Shown here: positions 30,537-36,616 of the stretch, piece after piece
Layout: each line of letters opens with the position of its first letter
Numbering within the stretch: position 1 is the stretch's first letter
DNA from: Bacteroidetes bacterium GWC2_46_850
GTDB lineage: Bacteria > Bacteroidota > Bacteroidia > Bacteroidales > Dysgonomonadaceae
Assembly (NCBI GenBank): GCA_001768325.1
Contig: MENQ01000029.1
Coordinates: forward strand, 1 to 37,614
DNA: 37,614 nt
Direction: 5' to 3'
Notes under the pieces: generated by a model
What the model was told of the DNA's origin: nothing
The model's input: the letters and a program-made list of their open reading frames with translations, nothing else
The model's database searches: none
Translations under genes and position numbers: made by a program

Positions 30537-30944
30537 ATGGAAATAACACACATCGAGCACATTGGCATTGCTGTAAAAAGTATTGAAGAACATCTGCCCT
30601 ATTACGAAGGGATTCTTGGCCTTACATGCTATAACATTGAAACCGTGGAAGACCAGAAGGTGAAAACGGCTTTTTTCATGGTCGGGCCGACCAAGATAGA
30701 ACTTCTTGAGCCTACCAGTGAGGAAAGTACCATTGCCAAATTCATTGAGAAAAGGGGCGAAGGGGTGCATCACATTGCCTATGCTACAAAAAATGTGAAC
30801 GAAGCATTAAAGGAAGTCGAAGAAAAGGGTGTACGCCTGATCGACCAGGAGGCACGTGGCGGTGCCGAAGGGCTGCGGATCGCTTTTCTCCATCCCAAAT
30901 CTACGGGAAGCGTACTGACCGAATTATGTGAACATCCCGAATAA
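30537..30944 (+). CDS. mce: Methylmalonyl-CoA epimerase
   Basis: Cytoplasmic VOC-fold enzyme that interconverts (2R)- and (2S)-methylmalonyl-CoA and so links methylmalonyl-CoA mutase to decarboxylation in the succinate-to-propionate route. The 135-residue protein has two VOC modules: [13 protein letters not shown] at the start with metal-ligand His8, KIELLEP in the middle, [11 protein letters not shown] and the C-terminal [12 protein letters not shown]. It is the first gene of the operon; mmdA follows after 32 bases. The mutase genes are not in the window. The neighbouring decarboxylase makes this assignment firm. Confidence 0.93.
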
Positions 30945-30976: not shown

Positions 30977-32539
30977 ATGAGCAATCAACTTGAGAAAGTA
31001 AAAGAGCTTATTGAACTCCGTGAGAAAGCTCGGTTAGGCGGTGGCGAAAAAAGAATTGAATCGCAACACCTGAAAGGAAAATACACAGCCCGTGAGCGTA
31101 TTGCCATGCTCCTGGATGAAGGCAGTTTCGAAGAATTTGACATGTTCGTGGAACACAGATCCCACAACTTCGGCATGGAAAAAACAAAATTCCTTGGCGA
31201 CGGGGTTGTCACCGGCTTTGGAACTATCGACGGGCGACTGATTTATGTTTTTGCACAGGATTTCACAGTCTCCGGCGGTTCTCTTTCTGAAATGCATGCA
31301 CAGAAAATATGCAAGGTGATGGATCAGGCCATGAAGATGGGTGCCCCGCTGATTGGCATCAACGACTCGGGCGGTGCACGTATTCAGGAAGGCATCAACG
31401 CACTGGGCGGGTATGCTGAGATTTTTCAACGCAACATCCTGGCATCGGGTGTGATTCCGCAGATATCCGGCATCTTTGGCCCCTGCGCGGGAGGTGCGGT
31501 CTATTCTCCGGCCCTCACCGACTTCATCATCATGACCCAGGGCACTTCCTACATGTTCCTTACCGGCCCCAAAGTGGTTAAGACAGTGACCGGAGAAGAT
31601 GTAACCCAGGAGCAACTGGGCGGTGCGTCGATACACGCAGCCAAATCGGGTGTATCGCAGTTTCAGGTACAGACCGAGGAGGATGGCATGAAGCTGATCC
31701 AAAAGTTACTCAGTTATATTCCCCAGAACAACATGGAGGAAGCACCACTGCAGCCCAATGATGACCCCATTTACAGGTTGGAGGATGGTTTGAATGACAT
31801 CATTCCCGACAGTCCCACCAAACCCTACGACATGTATGAAGTAATTGGCGCCATCATCGACAAGGGTGAATTTCTGGAGGTGCATGCCGATTACGCAAAG
31901 AACATCATCGTGGGCTTTGCCCGTTTCAACGGCATGTCGGTGGGTGTTGTCGCAAATCAGCCCAAGTTTCTTGCGGGCGTTCTCGACATCAGTGCTTCCC
32001 GCAAGGCAGCCCGCTTTGTGCGTTTCTGCGATGCTTTCAACATACCCCTTGTCACCTTGGTAGACGTTCCCGGCTTCCTTCCCGGCACAGGACAGGAATA
32101 TGGCGGGGTAATTACCCACGGCGCCAAGCTTCTTTATGCATACGGTGAAGCCACCGTGCCCAAAGTAACCGTTACCCTGCGCAAGTCTTACGGAGGAGCT
32201 CATATCGTGATGAGCTGCAAGCAGCTTCGCGGCGACATCAACTATGCCTGGCCCACAGCCGAGATTGCGGTGATGGGCGCCGACGGTGCGGTGGAAGTAC
32301 TCTACAGCAAGGAGATTGCGGCAGAAAAGGATCCGGAAAAATTGACTGAAGTATTGTCTGAAAAGAAAAAGGAATACAACGACTTGTTTACCAATCCCTA
32401 TGTGGCAGCCAGATATGGTTATATCGACGATGTGATTGAGCCACGCAACACCCGTTTCCGCGTGATCCGTGCTTTGCAGCAACTGCAGACCAAGAAATTG
32501 CAGAACCCGCCCAAAAAGCATGACAACTTACCACTTTAA
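30977..32539 (+). CDS. mmdA: Methylmalonyl-CoA decarboxylase, carboxyltransferase (alpha) subunit
   Basis: Soluble carboxyltransferase that moves the carboxyl group from (S)-methylmalonyl-CoA to the biotin of the carrier protein; the membrane beta subunit then decarboxylates carboxybiotin and pumps sodium. The 520-residue protein has two crotonase-like halves, with the oxyanion-hole segments GGARIQEG and [13 protein letters not shown] in the N-half and [17 protein letters not shown] and [13 protein letters not shown] in the C-half. The length is right for MmdA/PccB. A propionyl-CoA carboxylase beta role is possible by sequence alone, but no biotin carboxylase is present and oadB genes follow. 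Confidence 0.93.
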
Positions 32540-32551
32540 TTGATGATGTGT

Positions 32552-33454
32552 ATGAAACAAATAACATATATATCCTTCCTTTTCCTTGCGGTTCTGCTTT
32601 CGGGATGTTCCTCCGAAAAGAAGAATCCCGCCTGGGTGATCAACGAAGTGATGGTGGTGAATGAAACCAATTACGTTGATGACTTCGGGCAACGGAACGG
32701 ATGGATTGAAATTTATAACAATACGGCAGCGACCAAGGATCTGGGAGGAAGGTACCTTACCAACGACCGCAACAATCCAAAGAAATATCCGATTCCCCGG
32801 GGTGATGTCCTCACGCGTATACCACCTCATCAGCATGTGCTGTTCTGGGCAGATAACGAACCGTTCAATGGTACGTTTCATGTTAATTTCAAACTTGACC
32901 CAACCCAGGATAATTATATCGCATTGTATGAAAACGATGGAAAAACCCTGCTCGATGAGATTGTAATCCCCGCCGGCATGCTGACGGATCAGACTTACGG
33001 ATATCCGAATGACGGCATTAAATATGACAAGGAAGGCAAAAGCCTTTCCACTCATCTGAAGAGGGTAACACCCAGCAGCAACAATGCCATTCTGGAAGAA
33101 AATCCAAAAGTGGTTAGTCTGCAGGAAACCGATACTTTTGGAGGAATGCTCACCATCACCTCCATGCTGGTAGTATTTATCGCATTGATTGCTTTGTATC
33201 TTTTCTTCAAATTATCGGGTAACCTGGCCAAAAACATGTCGCAGAAGAAGGTGGCCCAAAGCGGTACACTCTCTGCTGCCCGTAGCCAGTCTCATCTCTC
33301 GGGAGAAGTTCTGGCAGCTATTTCCGCCGCGATCAACGAATTGAGAGAAGATCAGCATGATATTGAATCGACCATCCTCACCATCAACCAGGTGAAGAGA
33401 AGTTATTCGCCCTGGAGTTCCAAGCTGCAAACACTCAGGAAATTACCAAAATAA
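32552..33454 (+). CDS. Lipoprotein lamin-tail domain fused to OadG-type gamma subunit
   Basis: A 300-residue membrane protein in the place of the decarboxylase gamma subunit. A lipoprotein signal ends at Cys19 (LLSGC). A lamin-tail-like beta domain follows at about 27-185 (INEVMVVNE, DFGQRNGWIEIYNNT, LGGRYLTND, FKLDP). A transmembrane helix is at 198-220 (MLTITSMLVVFIALIALYLFF). The cytoplasmic tail ends in EVLAAISAAINELRE and VKRSYSPWSSKLQTLRKLP, as in OadG. It would thus be anchored twice, with a periplasmic beta domain. The role is probably assembly or stability of the sodium pump; the lamin-tail function is unknown. I chose ATG 32552; ATGs at 32543 and 32546 are possible, adding three or two residues. 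Confidence 0.83.
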   Translation: MKQITYISFLFLAVLLSGCSSEKKNPAWVINEVMVVNETNYVDDFGQRNGWIEIYNNTAATKDLGGRYLTNDRNNPKKYPIPRGDVLTRIPPHQHVLFWADNEPFNGTFHVNFKLDPTQDNYIALYENDGKTLLDEIVIPAGMLTDQTYGYPNDGIKYDKEGKSLSTHLKRVTPSSNNAILEENPKVVSLQETDTFGGMLTITSMLVVFIALIALYLFFKLSGNLAKNMSQKKVAQSGTLSAARSQSHLSGEVLAAISAAINELREDQHDIESTILTINQVKRSYSPWSSKLQTLRKLPK

Positions 33455-33460
33455 AATCAG

Positions 33461-33488
33461 AGACAAAGAACCAAGAACAAAGACACAT
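33461..33488. repeat. Short heptamer-like run after the gamma gene
   Basis: AGACAAA, GAACCAA, GAACAAA, GACACAT follow each other in 7-bp steps, starting seven bases after the stop codon at 33454. It is degenerate and short. Confidence 0.4.
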
Positions 33489-33552
33489 TTCCGTTCCGCC
33501 CGTATTGTACAAAAAACTTGTGGGATGAGTCCGGATAATAAAAATAAATTGT

Positions 33553-33996
33553 ATGAAAGAGTTTAATTATAAAATCAACGGTACACCCTACAGGGTAGTG
33601 GTAACCAAATCCGACACAGAAACAGTTGAACTGGAAGTGAACGGCACACCCTTCACCGTGGAAATGGCACAAAAAACCAAAAAAGCGCTCTCGGGCGTGA
33701 AACGTCCCAGTACCTCAGCACCATCTCCCGTGCCCCAATCAACAACCACGCCGCTTGTAACCAGACCATCGGCTCCTGCAGGCAAAAACACCATTCAATC
33801 ACCCCTGCCCGGCATCATTCTTGACATTCGCTGCAAAGTGGGTGACACGGTGAAGAAAGGACAAACACTGATGATTTTGGAAGCCATGAAGATGGAGAAT
33901 AACATTCTGTCGAACGGAAATGGCAAGATTACGGAAATTTTGGTGCAGAAAGGGGACTCGGTGCTTGAGGGAGCCAATCTTGTAGTAATTGAATAA
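33553..33996 (+). CDS. Biotin carboxyl carrier subunit of the decarboxylase
   Basis: A 147-residue soluble carrier whose biotin shuttles CO2 between MmdA and the membrane beta subunit. Residues 1-45 form a small beta domain of the kind seen in MmdC/PccA-like carriers. A Pro/Ser/Thr-rich linker (about 50-80) gives the arm its mobility. The biotinyl domain has LPGIIL and EAMKMEN with the modified Lys113. It lies 16 bases before the first oadB gene. It is the only biotin carrier in the operon, so both beta subunits must share it, unless another is encoded elsewhere. Confidence 0.93.
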   Translation: MKEFNYKINGTPYRVVVTKSDTETVELEVNGTPFTVEMAQKTKKALSGVKRPSTSAPSPVPQSTTTPLVTRPSAPAGKNTIQSPLPGIILDIRCKVGDTVKKGQTLMILEAMKMENNILSNGNGKITEILVQKGDSVLEGANLVVIE

Positions 33997-34011
33997 AATC
34001 CCGGAGATCAT

Positions 34012-35169
34012 ATGAATGCATTACTATCATTATCAGATAATCTACAGACCTTCTGGGATTATACAGGGTTTGCCAACGCCGAAGCAGGACATTTTATCAT
34101 GATCCTGTTCGGATTGGTCTTTATTTACCTGGCCATCACCAAGGAATATGAACCGCTGCTTTTGATCCCGATCGGGTTCGGTATACTCGTCGGAAATATT
34201 CCGTTCAATGAGGCCGCCAACCTGCAGGTGGGAATCTATGAGGAGGGATCGGTGCTGAATATTCTTTATCAGGGTGTGGTAAAAGGGTGGTACCCACCCT
34301 TGATTTTTCTGGGTATTGGCGCAATGACAGATTTCTCGGCATTGATAGCCAACCCAAAGTTAATCCTGGTCGGCGCAGCTGCACAATTTGGCATATTTGG
34401 AGCCTATATCATTGCTCTCCAAATGGGTTTTGCTCCCAATGAGGCGGGAGCAATCGGCATCATTGGTGGTGCCGACGGTCCGACGGCCATCTTCACCACA
34501 TCGAAACTAGCCCCTCACTTGCTGGGGGCCGTTGCCATCTCGGCATACTCATATATGGCGCTGGTGCCGGTTATACAACCTCCGTTCATGCGGCTGCTGA
34601 CCACGAAAAAAGAGCGTTTGATCAAGATGAAGACACCCCGTGTGGTATCACAAACCGAAAAGGTTTTGTTTCCCATTATGGGACTGTTACTGACTGCCTT
34701 CCTGGTACCTTCGGGGCTTCCGCTATTAGGAATGCTTTTTTTCGGTAACCTACTGAAAGAGTCGGGTGTTACACGCCGTCTGGCTGAGACAGCACGCGGG
34801 CCGCTGATCGACACCATCACCATCCTGTTAGGATTCACCGTGGGTGCTTCCACGCAAGCCACGACCTTTCTTCGGATGGAATCGATCAAAGTATTCGCAA
34901 TCGGCGCCCTCTCTTTTGTAATTGCCACATGTGCGGGTATCCTCTTCGTGAAGGCTTTCAATCTTTTATTGCCAAAAGAGAAGAGAATCAACCCGCTAAT
35001 CGGGAACTCGGGTGTTTCTGCTGTACCCGATGCTGCGCGCATATCACAGACCATCGGGCTGGAATATGATCCGACAAACTACCTGCTGATGCATGCCATG
35101 GGGCCCAATGTGGCAGGTGTGATCGGTTCAGCTGTTGCTGCCGGTATTTTGCTTGGATTCTTGTATTAA
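34012..35169 (+). CDS. oadB: Sodium-pumping decarboxylase beta subunit, copy 1
   Basis: Integral membrane subunit (OadB/MmdB/GcdB family) that decarboxylates carboxybiotin and exports Na+. The 385-residue protein has about nine hydrophobic segments. The coupling motifs are whole: GADGPT (Asp equivalent of Klebsiella D203), Tyr in AYSYMALVP (Y229), and NPLIGNSGVSAVPDAAR with Asn, Gly, Ser and Arg at relative positions 0, 4, 9 and 16, equal to N373, G377, S382 and R389. Of the two copies it looks nearer to the standard family. It begins 16 bases after the biotin carrier gene, and the second copy follows 29 bases after its stop. Confidence 0.93.
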   Translation: MNALLSLSDNLQTFWDYTGFANAEAGHFIMILFGLVFIYLAITKEYEPLLLIPIGFGILVGNIPFNEAANLQVGIYEEGSVLNILYQGVVKGWYPPLIFLGIGAMTDFSALIANPKLILVGAAAQFGIFGAYIIALQMGFAPNEAGAIGIIGGADGPTAIFTTSKLAPHLLGAVAISAYSYMALVPVIQPPFMRLLTTKKERLIKMKTPRVVSQTEKVLFPIMGLLLTAFLVPSGLPLLGMLFFGNLLKESGVTRRLAETARGPLIDTITILLGFTVGASTQATTFLRMESIKVFAIGALSFVIATCAGILFVKAFNLLLPKEKRINPLIGNSGVSAVPDAARISQTIGLEYDPTNYLLMHAMGPNVAGVIGSAVAAGILLGFLY

Positions 35170-35197
35170 TTCCGGAATAGGTTAAAAAACAGTGAAT

Positions 35198-36349
35198 ATG
35201 GGTGTAGAACAATTGATGCCTGCCATTGCCGGTATGACCTGGCAGCATCTGGTGATGATCGGCGTCGGATTGATTCTTATTTATCTGGCCATTGCCAAAA
35301 ATTACGAACCGACGTTGCTGCTGCCGATGGGTTTTGGTGCCATCCTGGTAAATATACCGCTCTCTTCTGCACTCACGCAGATAGATCCGGCTACGGGCGA
35401 AGCGGTGGAAGGAGTATTGAACATCTTCTTCAACGCCGGTATTGCCACGGAGATCTTTCCGTTGCTCATCTTCATCGCTATCGGTGCCATGATCGATTTT
35501 ACACCCCTGTTTCGCAACCCTTCCTTGCTGCTGTTTGGTGCTGCAGCGCAGCTTGGCATCTTCCTCACCATGATGCTGGCAGCCCTGCTGGGATATGACA
35601 TCAGGGAAGCCGCTTCCATCGGCATCATTGGTGCTGCAGACGGCCCCACCTCCATCGTGGTGGCATCCCGATTCGCTCCCAACCTGCTGGGGCCCATTTC
35701 GGTGGCGGCCTATTCATACATGGCGCTTGTGCCCATTATTCAGCCTCCGGTGATCCGGTTGTTGACATCCCGGAAAGAGCGGTTAATACGAATGACCGGC
35801 AACAACAACAAGAAGATCTCCAAAAAAGCACTGATTGCATTTCCCATCGTGATTACCATTGCGGCGGGCATTATTGCTCCTTCGTCCCTTGCGTTGATCG
35901 GTTTTCTGATGTTTGGCAACCTGATCCGCGAGTGCGGTGTGCTGAACAAGCTTTCCCTTGCGGCACAGAATGAGCTCTCAAGCCTGGTGACCATTCTGCT
36001 GGGCATCACCATTGCCAGCACGATGACGGCCGAGCGTTTCATCCGTGTGGATACGCTCATCATCATTGCACTGGGCTTGTTTGCGTTTGTTTTTGATACC
36101 TTTGGCGGCGTGATCTTTGCCAAGTTCCTGAACCTGTTCCGGAAAGAAGGCAATAAAATTAACCCGATGGTGGGTGCCTGCGGCATCTCGGCCTTCCCCA
36201 TGTCGGCCCGTGTGATTCATCAGATGGGACAAAAAGAGGATCCTTATAACTACCTGCTTATGCCGGCTATCAGTGCCAATGTGGGCGGTCAGATAGGATC
36301 GGTTGTGGCTGGAGGTATTATTTTGACACTGGTTCCCTTACTTGCATAA
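35198..36349 (+). CDS. Sodium-pumping decarboxylase beta subunit, copy 2
   Basis: A second, diverged OadB-family subunit of 383 residues, directly after copy 1. The same coupling residues are kept: AADGPT, AYSYMALVP, and NPMVGACGISAFPMSAR (Asn, Gly, Ser, Arg at 0, 4, 9, 16). Differences include a longer segment at about 52-80 (TQIDPATGEAVEGVLN), a Lys/Asn-rich cytoplasmic loop (GNNNKKISKK) and many changes inside the helices, so the duplication is old. I chose ATG 35198; a GTG at 35192 would add two residues. A 61-residue gamma-like gene follows after nine bases. It might be a pump of different ion or partner preference; this is inference. Confidence 0.9.
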   Translation: MGVEQLMPAIAGMTWQHLVMIGVGLILIYLAIAKNYEPTLLLPMGFGAILVNIPLSSALTQIDPATGEAVEGVLNIFFNAGIATEIFPLLIFIAIGAMIDFTPLFRNPSLLLFGAAAQLGIFLTMMLAALLGYDIREAASIGIIGAADGPTSIVVASRFAPNLLGPISVAAYSYMALVPIIQPPVIRLLTSRKERLIRMTGNNNKKISKKALIAFPIVITIAAGIIAPSSLALIGFLMFGNLIRECGVLNKLSLAAQNELSSLVTILLGITIASTMTAERFIRVDTLIIIALGLFAFVFDTFGGVIFAKFLNLFRKEGNKINPMVGACGISAFPMSARVIHQMGQKEDPYNYLLMPAISANVGGQIGSVVAGGIILTLVPLLA

Positions 36350-36358
36350 ACAAATGAT

Positions 36359-36544
36359 ATGACACCAACAGTACAAACAGCATTGCTTATTGCAGGAATC
36401 GGGATAGTCGGGATTTTTATTTTCATGGCACTCTTCTACCTGATGATTATTGCACTCGATAAATACCTCCCTTATCAGGAAGAGAAACCGGCTGAAGTCT
36501 ATCTTTCGGAGACAGAGGAGGAGGAGGAAGAGATAGAGGAATAA
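36359..36544 (+). CDS. Small OadG-like gamma subunit
   Basis: A 61-residue single-span membrane protein. Residues 8-31 form one helix (LIAGIGIVGIFIFMALFYLMII), followed by ALDKYLP and an acidic tail (SETEEEEEEIEE). The pattern, GxGIVxxF-type helix, short basic/aromatic boundary and charged tail, is that of OadG, the small gamma subunit that holds the decarboxylase complex together. It is easy to miss in annotation because of its size. Its position right after the second beta gene suggests it pairs with that subunit, while the lamin-tail fusion pairs with copy 1. Confidence 0.78.
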   Translation: MTPTVQTALLIAGIGIVGIFIFMALFYLMIIALDKYLPYQEEKPAEVYLSETEEEEEEIEE

Positions 36545-36572: not shown

Positions 36573-36616
36573 GGGGAAATGACTCAACAAGTTGGGACAT
36601 TTCCCCCTTTATTTTT
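36573..36616 (+). terminator. Terminator of the decarboxylase operon
   Basis: GGGGAAATG and CATTTCCCC form the outer 9-bp stem, with an inner CTCAAC/GTTGGG stem, one A-A mismatch and a 2-base loop. CTTTATTTTT follows. It lies 28 bases after the last stop and just before the convergent nadK stop. Confidence 0.85.

What the first reader, a model, noticed from the sequence alone, without database searches (positions are those of the whole stretch)
32552..36544. One decarboxylase operon with two beta and two gamma membrane subunits
After a single carboxyltransferase (mmdA) come a lamin-tail/OadG fusion, a single biotin carrier, two tandem OadB paralogs and a 61-residue OadG-like protein. Both OadB copies keep the Asp, Tyr, Asn, Gly, Ser and Arg residues known from Klebsiella OadB to couple decarboxylation to Na+ export. 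The usual system has one beta and one gamma. The operon may therefore make two alternative membrane sectors fed by one carboxybiotin carrier (for example for different ions or energy states), or one complex with a beta heteromer. This is my leading candidate for an undescribed system.
Basis: partly seen in the sequence, partly recalled or inferred. Interest (0 to 1): 0.75.

Follow-up and report, generated by a model that had tools for sequence, protein, structure and literature searches.

The report
Sodium pump operon with two motors
This bacterial operon for a propionate-forming enzyme carries its own membrane sodium-pump subunit plus a second one of foreign type with a separate tiny helper protein, and related genomes that keep only one or the other suggest that the two are interchangeable motors for a single enzyme.

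Summary
"Paralogs" is misleading: copy 2 (B2) is not a duplicate of copy 1 (B1). It groups with Bacillota/Cloacimonadota β subunits, many of which are followed by a small transmembrane-only γ (g2) and few of which lie near a decarboxylase gene. The B1-B2-g2 tandem is kept in 43 of 51 B2-bearing genomes of the family (Dysgonomonadaceae). Five relatives lack B1 and keep mmdA-tail-carrier-B2-g2; three have B1 only. In 8 Bacteroidota genomes a B2-type is the only OadB, in two of them away from mmdA. The α-binding γ tail has lost its membrane helix in 9 loci, all in genomes with B2-g2; 63 of 63 B1-bearing operons in one count keep it (one exception found later). Best reading: two alternative membrane sectors of different origin for one MmdA/carrier, the second a laterally acquired split-γ sector. 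An obligate heteromer is unlikely; mixed trimers stay possible. The OadB pair is already annotated in Petrimonas mucosa, without comment in the passages seen. New variant of a known kind.

The parts
30537..30944 (+). methylmalonyl-CoA epimerase
   Evidence: TIGR03081 155.7 bits, cut-off 115
30977..32539 (+). mmdA, carboxyltransferase (alpha) subunit
   Evidence: PF01039 662 bits; TIGR01117 mmdA 803.8 bits, below its curated cut-off 998.8
32552..33454 (+). one-piece gamma with lipoprotein-like start, lamin-tail domain, one membrane helix and cytoplasmic alpha-binding-type tail (LTDgamma); frame open from TTG 32540
   Evidence: PF00932 40.4 bits, PF04277 47.6 bits; helix at residues 198-230 counted from TTG 32540
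33553..33996 (+). biotin carrier (MmdC-like), EAMKMEN motif
   Evidence: PF00364 63.9 bits; NF047903 78.8 bits, cut-off 200 not reached
34012..35169 (+). OadB1 (B1), native Bacteroidota-type beta
   Evidence: TIGR01109 469 bits, cut-off 190.6; tree
35170..35191 (+). 22-nt B1-B2 gap, no hairpin here; 17 of 43 tandem loci have a stem of 9 bp or more in this gap
35192..36349 (+). OadB2 (B2), Bacillota/Cloacimonadota-type beta; GTG start, or ATG at 35198
   Evidence: TIGR01109 411 bits; tree
36359..36544 (+). g2, transmembrane-only gamma (OadG_rel_small), no alpha-binding tail seen
   Evidence: NF040909 25.3 bits, cut-off 25; profile match to gamma helix; helix in AF2 model
36573..36616 (+). terminator-like hairpin after g2

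Best explanation
The operon encodes one cytosolic methylmalonyl-CoA decarboxylase front end (MmdA plus one biotin carrier) and two membrane sectors of different origin. Sector 1 is the native one: B1 with a one-piece gamma (lipoprotein-anchored lamin-tail domain, membrane helix, cytoplasmic tail that by homology holds MmdA). Sector 2 is a laterally acquired cassette: B2 with g2, a gamma reduced to its membrane helix. Both beta subunits should take carboxybiotin from the same carrier, decarboxylate it and export Na+. Sector 2 has no tail of its own in this operon, so it would reach MmdA through the tail of LTDgamma or take the free carrier. Shown by sequence: the two origins, the persistence of the tandem, and that each beta occurs without the other beside mmdA and a carrier. 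Inferred: that both sectors work with this MmdA in this organism, the tail sharing, and that the use is alternative (tuning of pump number, Na+ affinity or expression) rather than simultaneous in one trimer.
For: Tree: B2 in a clade with Bacillota and Cloacimonadota (66 rows, branch 1.21, SH-aLRT 100), B1 in a separate, almost wholly Bacteroidota clade (36 rows, 100). In 79 named B2-type loci, 51 have a g2-like ORF next to B2 (31 at E 0.001 or better) and only 12 have any mmdA-, oadA- or carrier-like ORF in the stretch held (genes). Natural knock-outs: 5 family genomes with B2+g2 and no B1 beside mmdA (L050, L062, L078, L081, L200), 3 with B1 only; a B2-type is the only OadB in G755, G775, G658, G729, G808, G045, G049 and G394; in G729 and G808 it is unlinked to the mmdA-tail-carrier operon. 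Tail proteins without a membrane helix: 9 loci (L078, L081, L104, L208, L209, L223, L225, L227, L233), all in genomes with B2-g2; 63 of 63 B1-bearing operons keep the helix. g2 profile matches the gamma helix, P 1.7e-5 (probability 79%), reversed control P 0.028. In Salmonella OAD the gamma helix binds beta and the tail, separately removable, binds alpha (PMC7274780). Na+ residues intact in both. Median dN/dS 0.038 (B1) and 0.026 (B2). An independent tandem in a Bacillota MAG, L147. Hairpins in 17 of 43 B1-B2 gaps suggest separately set expression in those genomes.
Against: No biochemistry, expression or complex data. In the window the gap is 22 nt, so the two are probably co-transcribed, which also suits a mixed complex. 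g2 has no alpha-binding tail and the operon has only one tail protein. 28 of 79 named B2-type loci show no g2-like ORF by profile, among them the 3 Cloacimonadota (one of the 28, L147, has one by eye; one, L139, ends at the contig end). Exceptions to the gamma pattern: L050, L062, L200 and L139 have B2 and a helix-bearing gamma; L233 has a B1-like beta with a helix-less tail; L227 has, besides unlinked B2-g2, a further distant OadB-family gene right behind the carrier (371 bits; 31% to the third OadB). In G433, outside the family, B2 beside an intact B1 operon has a broken frame. Without the genomes with an exchanged LTDgamma-carrier-B1 block, LTDgamma correlates more with B2 (0.43) than with B1 (0.20), which speaks for sharing rather than strict separation.
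Confidence: 0.6

Rival explanations
1. B1 and B2 form one mixed beta trimer, with LTDgamma on B1 and g2 on B2, so that one complex holds two gamma kinds and the single tail tethers MmdA.
For: Beta subunits are trimers in Salmonella OAD (PMC7274780); long co-retention (43 of 51 B2-bearing family genomes); only one tail protein in the operon; LTDgamma-B2 partial correlation 0.43; tight gap in 19 of 43 loci including the window.
Against: Each beta occurs without the other in related genomes; hairpins between the genes in 17 of 43 loci; the LTDgamma-carrier-B1 block was exchanged as a unit without B2; B1-B2 partial correlation only 0.07 and 0.17 in the two subsets; 47% identity.
Confidence: 0.18
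2. B2-g2 serves another carboxybiotin donor (for example the genome's separate OadG-OadA-OadB set or pyruvate carboxylase) and merely sits behind the mmd operon.
For: 67 of 79 named B2-type loci show no mmdA-, oadA- or carrier-like ORF in the stretch held (donors unlike my reference proteins would be missed); TerC-like genes adjoin B2 in several Bacteroidota.
Against: The genome's other OadA has its own beta and small gamma (L036); in 8 Bacteroidota genomes a B2-type is the only OadB, and their mmd operons, all read, have no other beta; four family genomes read across the junction lack B1 and have B2 directly behind the carrier (L050, L062, L078, L081).
Confidence: 0.12
3. Redundant intermediate: an acquired sector that can replace the native one, now coexisting without a distinct role.
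For: B1-only, tandem and B2-only states look like steps of a replacement series; helix-less tails in several lineages without B1.
Against: Both copies are under purifying selection (median dN/dS 0.038 and 0.026); the tandem is kept in five genera (g1, g3, g5, g10, g11); in the 36 fetched tandem loci all B1 and B2 are full length except four B1 cut by contig ends, and N runs in one B2.
Confidence: 0.1

Closest known systems
Sodium-translocating methylmalonyl-CoA decarboxylase (MmdA/D/E/C/B, Veillonella, Propionigenium)
   Same: MmdA, separate biotin carrier, membrane beta, helix-plus-tail small subunit, epimerase gene next door. Veillonella also has two small subunits (delta, epsilon; recalled, not tested).
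   Different: Two beta of different origin; gamma carries a lamin-tail domain; second small gamma follows the second beta.
Klebsiella/Salmonella oxaloacetate decarboxylase OadGAB (PDB 6IVA/6IWW)
   Same: Only solved relative of both beta by sequence; Na+ residues; gamma helix and tail functions.
   Different: One beta and one one-piece gamma; biotin domain part of alpha.
Enterococcus faecalis-type OAD (OadA, OadB, OadD, OadH; PMC6193673, passages)
   Same: Seven Lactobacillales clusters (L140, L161, L176, L177, L183, L193, L197) carry a B2-type beta followed by a 40-47 aa g2-like ORF; in six of the seven a helix-less protein of 109-132 aa precedes the carrier, in the place of OadH.
   Different: Decarboxylates oxaloacetate; no second beta in the stretches read; that protein and the gamma tail do not match by profile.
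Petrimonas mucosa ING2-E5A oadB2-1/oadB2-2 (PMC7768429, Table 2, passages)
   Same: The same tandem in the same family; G545 has exactly its genome size, 3,717,632 bp.
   Different: Annotated there as oxaloacetate decarboxylase, the neighbouring carboxyltransferase as pccB1; two betas not discussed in the passages seen.

Membership tests
Na+-translocating methylmalonyl-CoA decarboxylase | MmdA carboxyltransferase by curated model | tested here: not met
   TIGR01117 is the best match but 803.8 bits is under the cut-off 998.8; PF01039 met
Na+-translocating methylmalonyl-CoA decarboxylase | Pathway context: epimerase and methylmalonyl-CoA mutase | tested here: met
   TIGR03081 over cut-off next to mmdA; two PF01642 genes on C16
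Na+-translocating methylmalonyl-CoA decarboxylase | Separate biotin carrier | tested here: met
   PF00364 63.9 bits and EAMKMEN; the MmdC model NF047903 is under its cut-off (78.8 of 200)
Na+-translocating methylmalonyl-CoA decarboxylase | Beta subunit with Na+ residues D203, S382, N412 | tested here: met
   B1 and B2 both
Na+-translocating methylmalonyl-CoA decarboxylase | Na+ transport coupled to methylmalonyl-CoA decarboxylation | not testable with these tools
   needs biochemistry
OadG/MmdD gamma-delta subunit (LTDgamma) | OAD_gamma domain: membrane helix plus cytoplasmic tail | tested here: met
   PF04277 47.6 bits over 27; helix 198-230; TIGR01195 31.2 is under its cut-off 36.05
OadG_rel_small (g2) | NF040909 over cut-off, next to a beta gene | tested here: met
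   25.3 bits, cut-off 25, only just; helix profile match
Full OadG (g2) | PF04277 over cut-off and alpha-binding tail | tested here: not met
   15.5 bits, cut-off 27; short acidic end after the helix
B2 as a paralogue of B1 | B1 and B2 sister within Bacteroidota | tested here: not met
   separate clades (quick search, SH-aLRT only, no AU test run)

The most novel reading that the evidence does not exclude
One decarboxylase and one carboxybiotin carrier drive two Na+ pumps of different evolutionary origin in the same cell, with a gamma function split in two and shared in trans (helix by g2, tail by LTDgamma); this tandem is a long-kept intermediate of a repeated replacement of the membrane motor, possibly including mixed beta trimers with two gamma kinds.
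Probability: 0.45. Interest if true: 0.68.

Novelty: new variant of a known kind. Interest (0 to 1): 0.52.

Why it matters
Gamma subunits of decarboxylase Na+ pumps have two jobs, holding beta and holding alpha. Here evolution seems to separate them repeatedly: in genomes with the B2+g2 pair the alpha-binding tail can lose its membrane helix. The family offers species with sector 1, sector 2 or both around similar MmdA (85-99% identical to the window's in the family loci with a full-length gene), so what each beta and gamma part contributes can be tested directly. It also warns that OadB genes next to mmdA get annotated as oxaloacetate decarboxylase (PMC7768429), and that a seemingly missing mmdD can hide as an unusual gamma (in Xylanibacter the authors themselves settled on an oadG-annotated gene; PMC11575231, passages).

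Tried and rejected
Fusion of B1 and B2 (782-aa frames in G024/G035): rejected, a stop lies between them. Gene duplication of B1: rejected. Degenerate B2 without Na+ residues: rejected for the window and the family. Different ion for B2: no residue evidence. Lamin-tail domain as a mark of B1: rejected, since 13 of 63 B1-bearing operons have a gamma without it. Co-variation: the strong LTDgamma-carrier-B1 signal (partial r 0.81-0.87) comes from a block exchanged in a few genomes; one search also included L055, whose B2 holds N runs; without five exchanged loci the signals are weak and do not separate B1 from B2. OadH-like proteins against the gamma tail: no profile match. Pfam of 10 neighbours of B2-type genes from 7 loci: no common partner, 4 of the 10 without any family. 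The AF2 model (58 rows, 21 of them read-through chains) gives a confident g2 helix (residues 393-425, pLDDT about 88-94, pTM 0.85) but no contacts could be read and the two proteins were given as one chain, so docking is not shown.

How one search counted: 63 B1-bearing loci (40 with B2, 23 without B2 in the stretch, of which L054 and L067 are cut by a contig end) and 7 B2-only. Dropped because mmdA or a recognised tail was missing: L036, L056, L060, L064, L065, L066, L068, L074, L075 of L034-L093, and of the later loci all those not named in that script. L200, L223, L225, L227, L139, L231, L233 and L123/L211 were judged apart. L209's helix score (1.57) is just under my threshold of 1.6. The tail and g2 profiles were built from this family, so distant members may be missed. 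The counts are not corrected for relatedness. Recalled, from no call: Veillonella epsilon subunit; Proteiniphilum as likely genus; TerC as the name of the multi-spanning neighbour.
Full report
What is there. The window holds, on the + strand, epimerase, mmdA, a lamin-tail/gamma fusion, a biotin carrier, OadB1, OadB2 and a 61-aa gene, followed by a terminator-like hairpin. The genome has a third OadB elsewhere, behind an OadA-like gene and an 83-aa OadG-like gene, and two methylmalonyl-CoA mutase genes. Both OadB of the window score far over the curated beta model (TIGR01109 469 and 411 bits, cut-off 190.6) and keep the residues that bind Na+ in Salmonella OadB, D203, S382 and N412, as well as E40 (residue roles: PMC7274780, parts 1-5 of 11 of its main section read; mapping). 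At two residues that matter moderately there, the copies differ: R304 is R in B1 and K in B2; N311 is G in B1 and N in B2.

The second copy is foreign, not a duplicate. In a tree of 114 OadB, the family's B1 lie with other Bacteroidota OadB (36 rows, SH-aLRT 100), while B2 lies in another clade with Bacillota and Cloacimonadota (66 rows, branch 1.21, support 100), the Bacteroidota B2 forming a subgroup (support 95). Of the 79 of these loci other than L120, 51 have a g2-like ORF beside B2 (31 at E 0.001 or better), and 12 have any mmdA-, oadA- or carrier-like ORF in the stretch held. None of the 3 Cloacimonadota shows a g2-like ORF. In seven Lactobacillales loci the pair sits with a carrier and an oadA-like gene, and in six of the seven a helix-less protein of 109-132 aa precedes the carrier. 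Enterococcus faecalis is described as having OadA, OadB, OadD and OadH, OadH being a proposed functional homologue of OadG within a cytoplasmic OadAHD complex (PMC6193673, passages).

Distribution. Of 101 genomes of the family, 51 have B2 at E 1e-110 or better. Of these, 43 have B1 directly upstream (in four B1 is cut by a contig end), 5 have B2+g2 without B1, 2 have B1 and B2 apart or not adjacent (G039, G053), and 1 is cut by a contig end. G027 is a 44th tandem with N runs in B2. B1-only are G041, G046 and G058. In the order sample 9 of 393 genomes have B2 at E 1e-115 or better, two of them in the family; in the phylum sample of 395 only 3 besides the window's had a match over 70% identity. 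On a tree of four neighbouring genes (42 rows) the B2-only genomes fall in more than one place among the tandem ones, and the three B1-only genomes lie on one side of a root drawn at the midpoint. The family is Dysgonomonadaceae: G545 has exactly the genome size given for Petrimonas mucosa ING2-E5A, whose Table 2 lists the pair as oadB2-1/oadB2-2 (passages).

Natural knock-outs. In L050, L062, L078 and L081 the carrier is followed directly by B2 and g2; L200 shows the same order with broken frames in a MAG. G755, G775, G658, G729, G808, G045 and G049 have a single OadB, as does G394, and it is of B2 type. In G729 and G808 the mmdA operon has no beta at all and B2-g2 lies elsewhere. A B2-type sector can therefore be the only beta of this family available to a MmdA.

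Split gamma. In Salmonella OAD residues 2-43 of gamma form the helix that binds beta, and removal of residues 61-84 loses alpha but not beta (PMC7274780). g2 has only the helix: 41 of 41 g2 show one, and the g2 profile aligns with the gamma helix (P 1.7e-5, probability 79%; reversed control 0.028, 2%). In mmdA operons with B1, 63 of 63 tail proteins carry a helix; in seven B2-only ones, 5 do not. Later loci add three without helix (L223, L225, L227), one helix-less tail beside a B1-like beta with B2-g2 5.7 kb away (L233), one LTDgamma with helix beside B1 (L231) and one B2 locus with helix (L139); L200 also has a helix. So all 9 helix-less tails found by the tail profile lie in genomes with B2-g2; they come from seven labelled genera plus Ca. 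Symbiothrix. L123/L211 has, in the tail's place, a helix-less protein that the tail profile does not recognise. L227 is weaker evidence, because a further distant OadB-family gene follows its carrier. The counts are not corrected for relatedness.

Selection and expression. Median dN/dS: mmdA 0.023, B1 0.038, B2 0.026, LTDgamma 0.091, carrier 0.098, g2 0.239 (29 tandem loci, 19 to 40 pairs per gene with dS under 1.5). The B1-B2 gap is 17-41 nt in 19 of 43 loci and 76 nt or more in 24; 17 of those 24, and none of the 19, hold an unbroken stem of 9 bp or more (G-U allowed); in 16 of the 17 at most 1 of 60 shuffles reached that stem. The LTDgamma-carrier-B1 block is divergent as a unit in six genomes while mmdA and B2 are not.

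Mechanism. Most likely one MmdA/carrier front end with two membrane sectors. Shown: origins, persistence, and that either beta occurs as the only one in related genomes. Inferred: Na+ export by both, tail sharing, alternative use. Mixed trimers remain open, because the window operon is compact and has one tail protein only. An independent tandem in a Bacillota MAG (L147: mmdA, 133-aa gamma, carrier, beta, B2-type, 40-aa helix gene) shows that the arrangement has arisen more than once.

Literature. Searches (openly licensed PMC papers only) listed no paper whose title or abstract start concerns a decarboxylase operon with two beta subunits of different type; the Petrimonas table above names the pair only. 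Papers seen in passages: PMC6193673, PMC7768429, PMC11575231, PMC10542786; in part: PMC7274780; the rest in search listings.

Verdict. A real, conserved feature, better explained than at first reading: a new variant of the biotin-dependent Na+ decarboxylase, with a testable replacement series. Interest 0.52.

Noticed in passing
L147:2490-7681: A Bacillota MAG has an independent tandem: mmdA, 133-aa gamma, carrier, beta, B2-type beta and a 40-aa helix-only gene.
   Followed up: partly
L083:5908-7044: G041's only OadB is of B1 type with D203N, Y229C, N412S and S419A, on a long branch; Na+ coupling may be lost or changed.
   Followed up: no
L106:6739-7951: B2 convergent to an intact B1 operon in G433, its frame broken near the C-terminus.
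   Followed up: partly
L104, L123, L208, L209, L139: A multi-spanning gene (TerC-like, name recalled) adjoins the mmd genes and B2 in five B2 loci.
   Followed up: no
L227:1385-4629: In G367 a distant OadB-family gene (407 aa, 31% to the third OadB) and two TerC-like genes follow the mmdA-tail-carrier genes.
   Followed up: no
L087:3407-6046: Independent tandem duplication of B1-type OadB in G079.
   Followed up: no
L037, L047, L052, L053, L055, L067: The LTDgamma-carrier-B1 block is strongly divergent while the flanking mmdA and B2 are not, in genomes scattered on the gene tree: block exchange.
   Followed up: partly
L036:5171-8583: Complete separate OadG (83 aa)-OadA-OadB set in the window's own genome.
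   Followed up: partly
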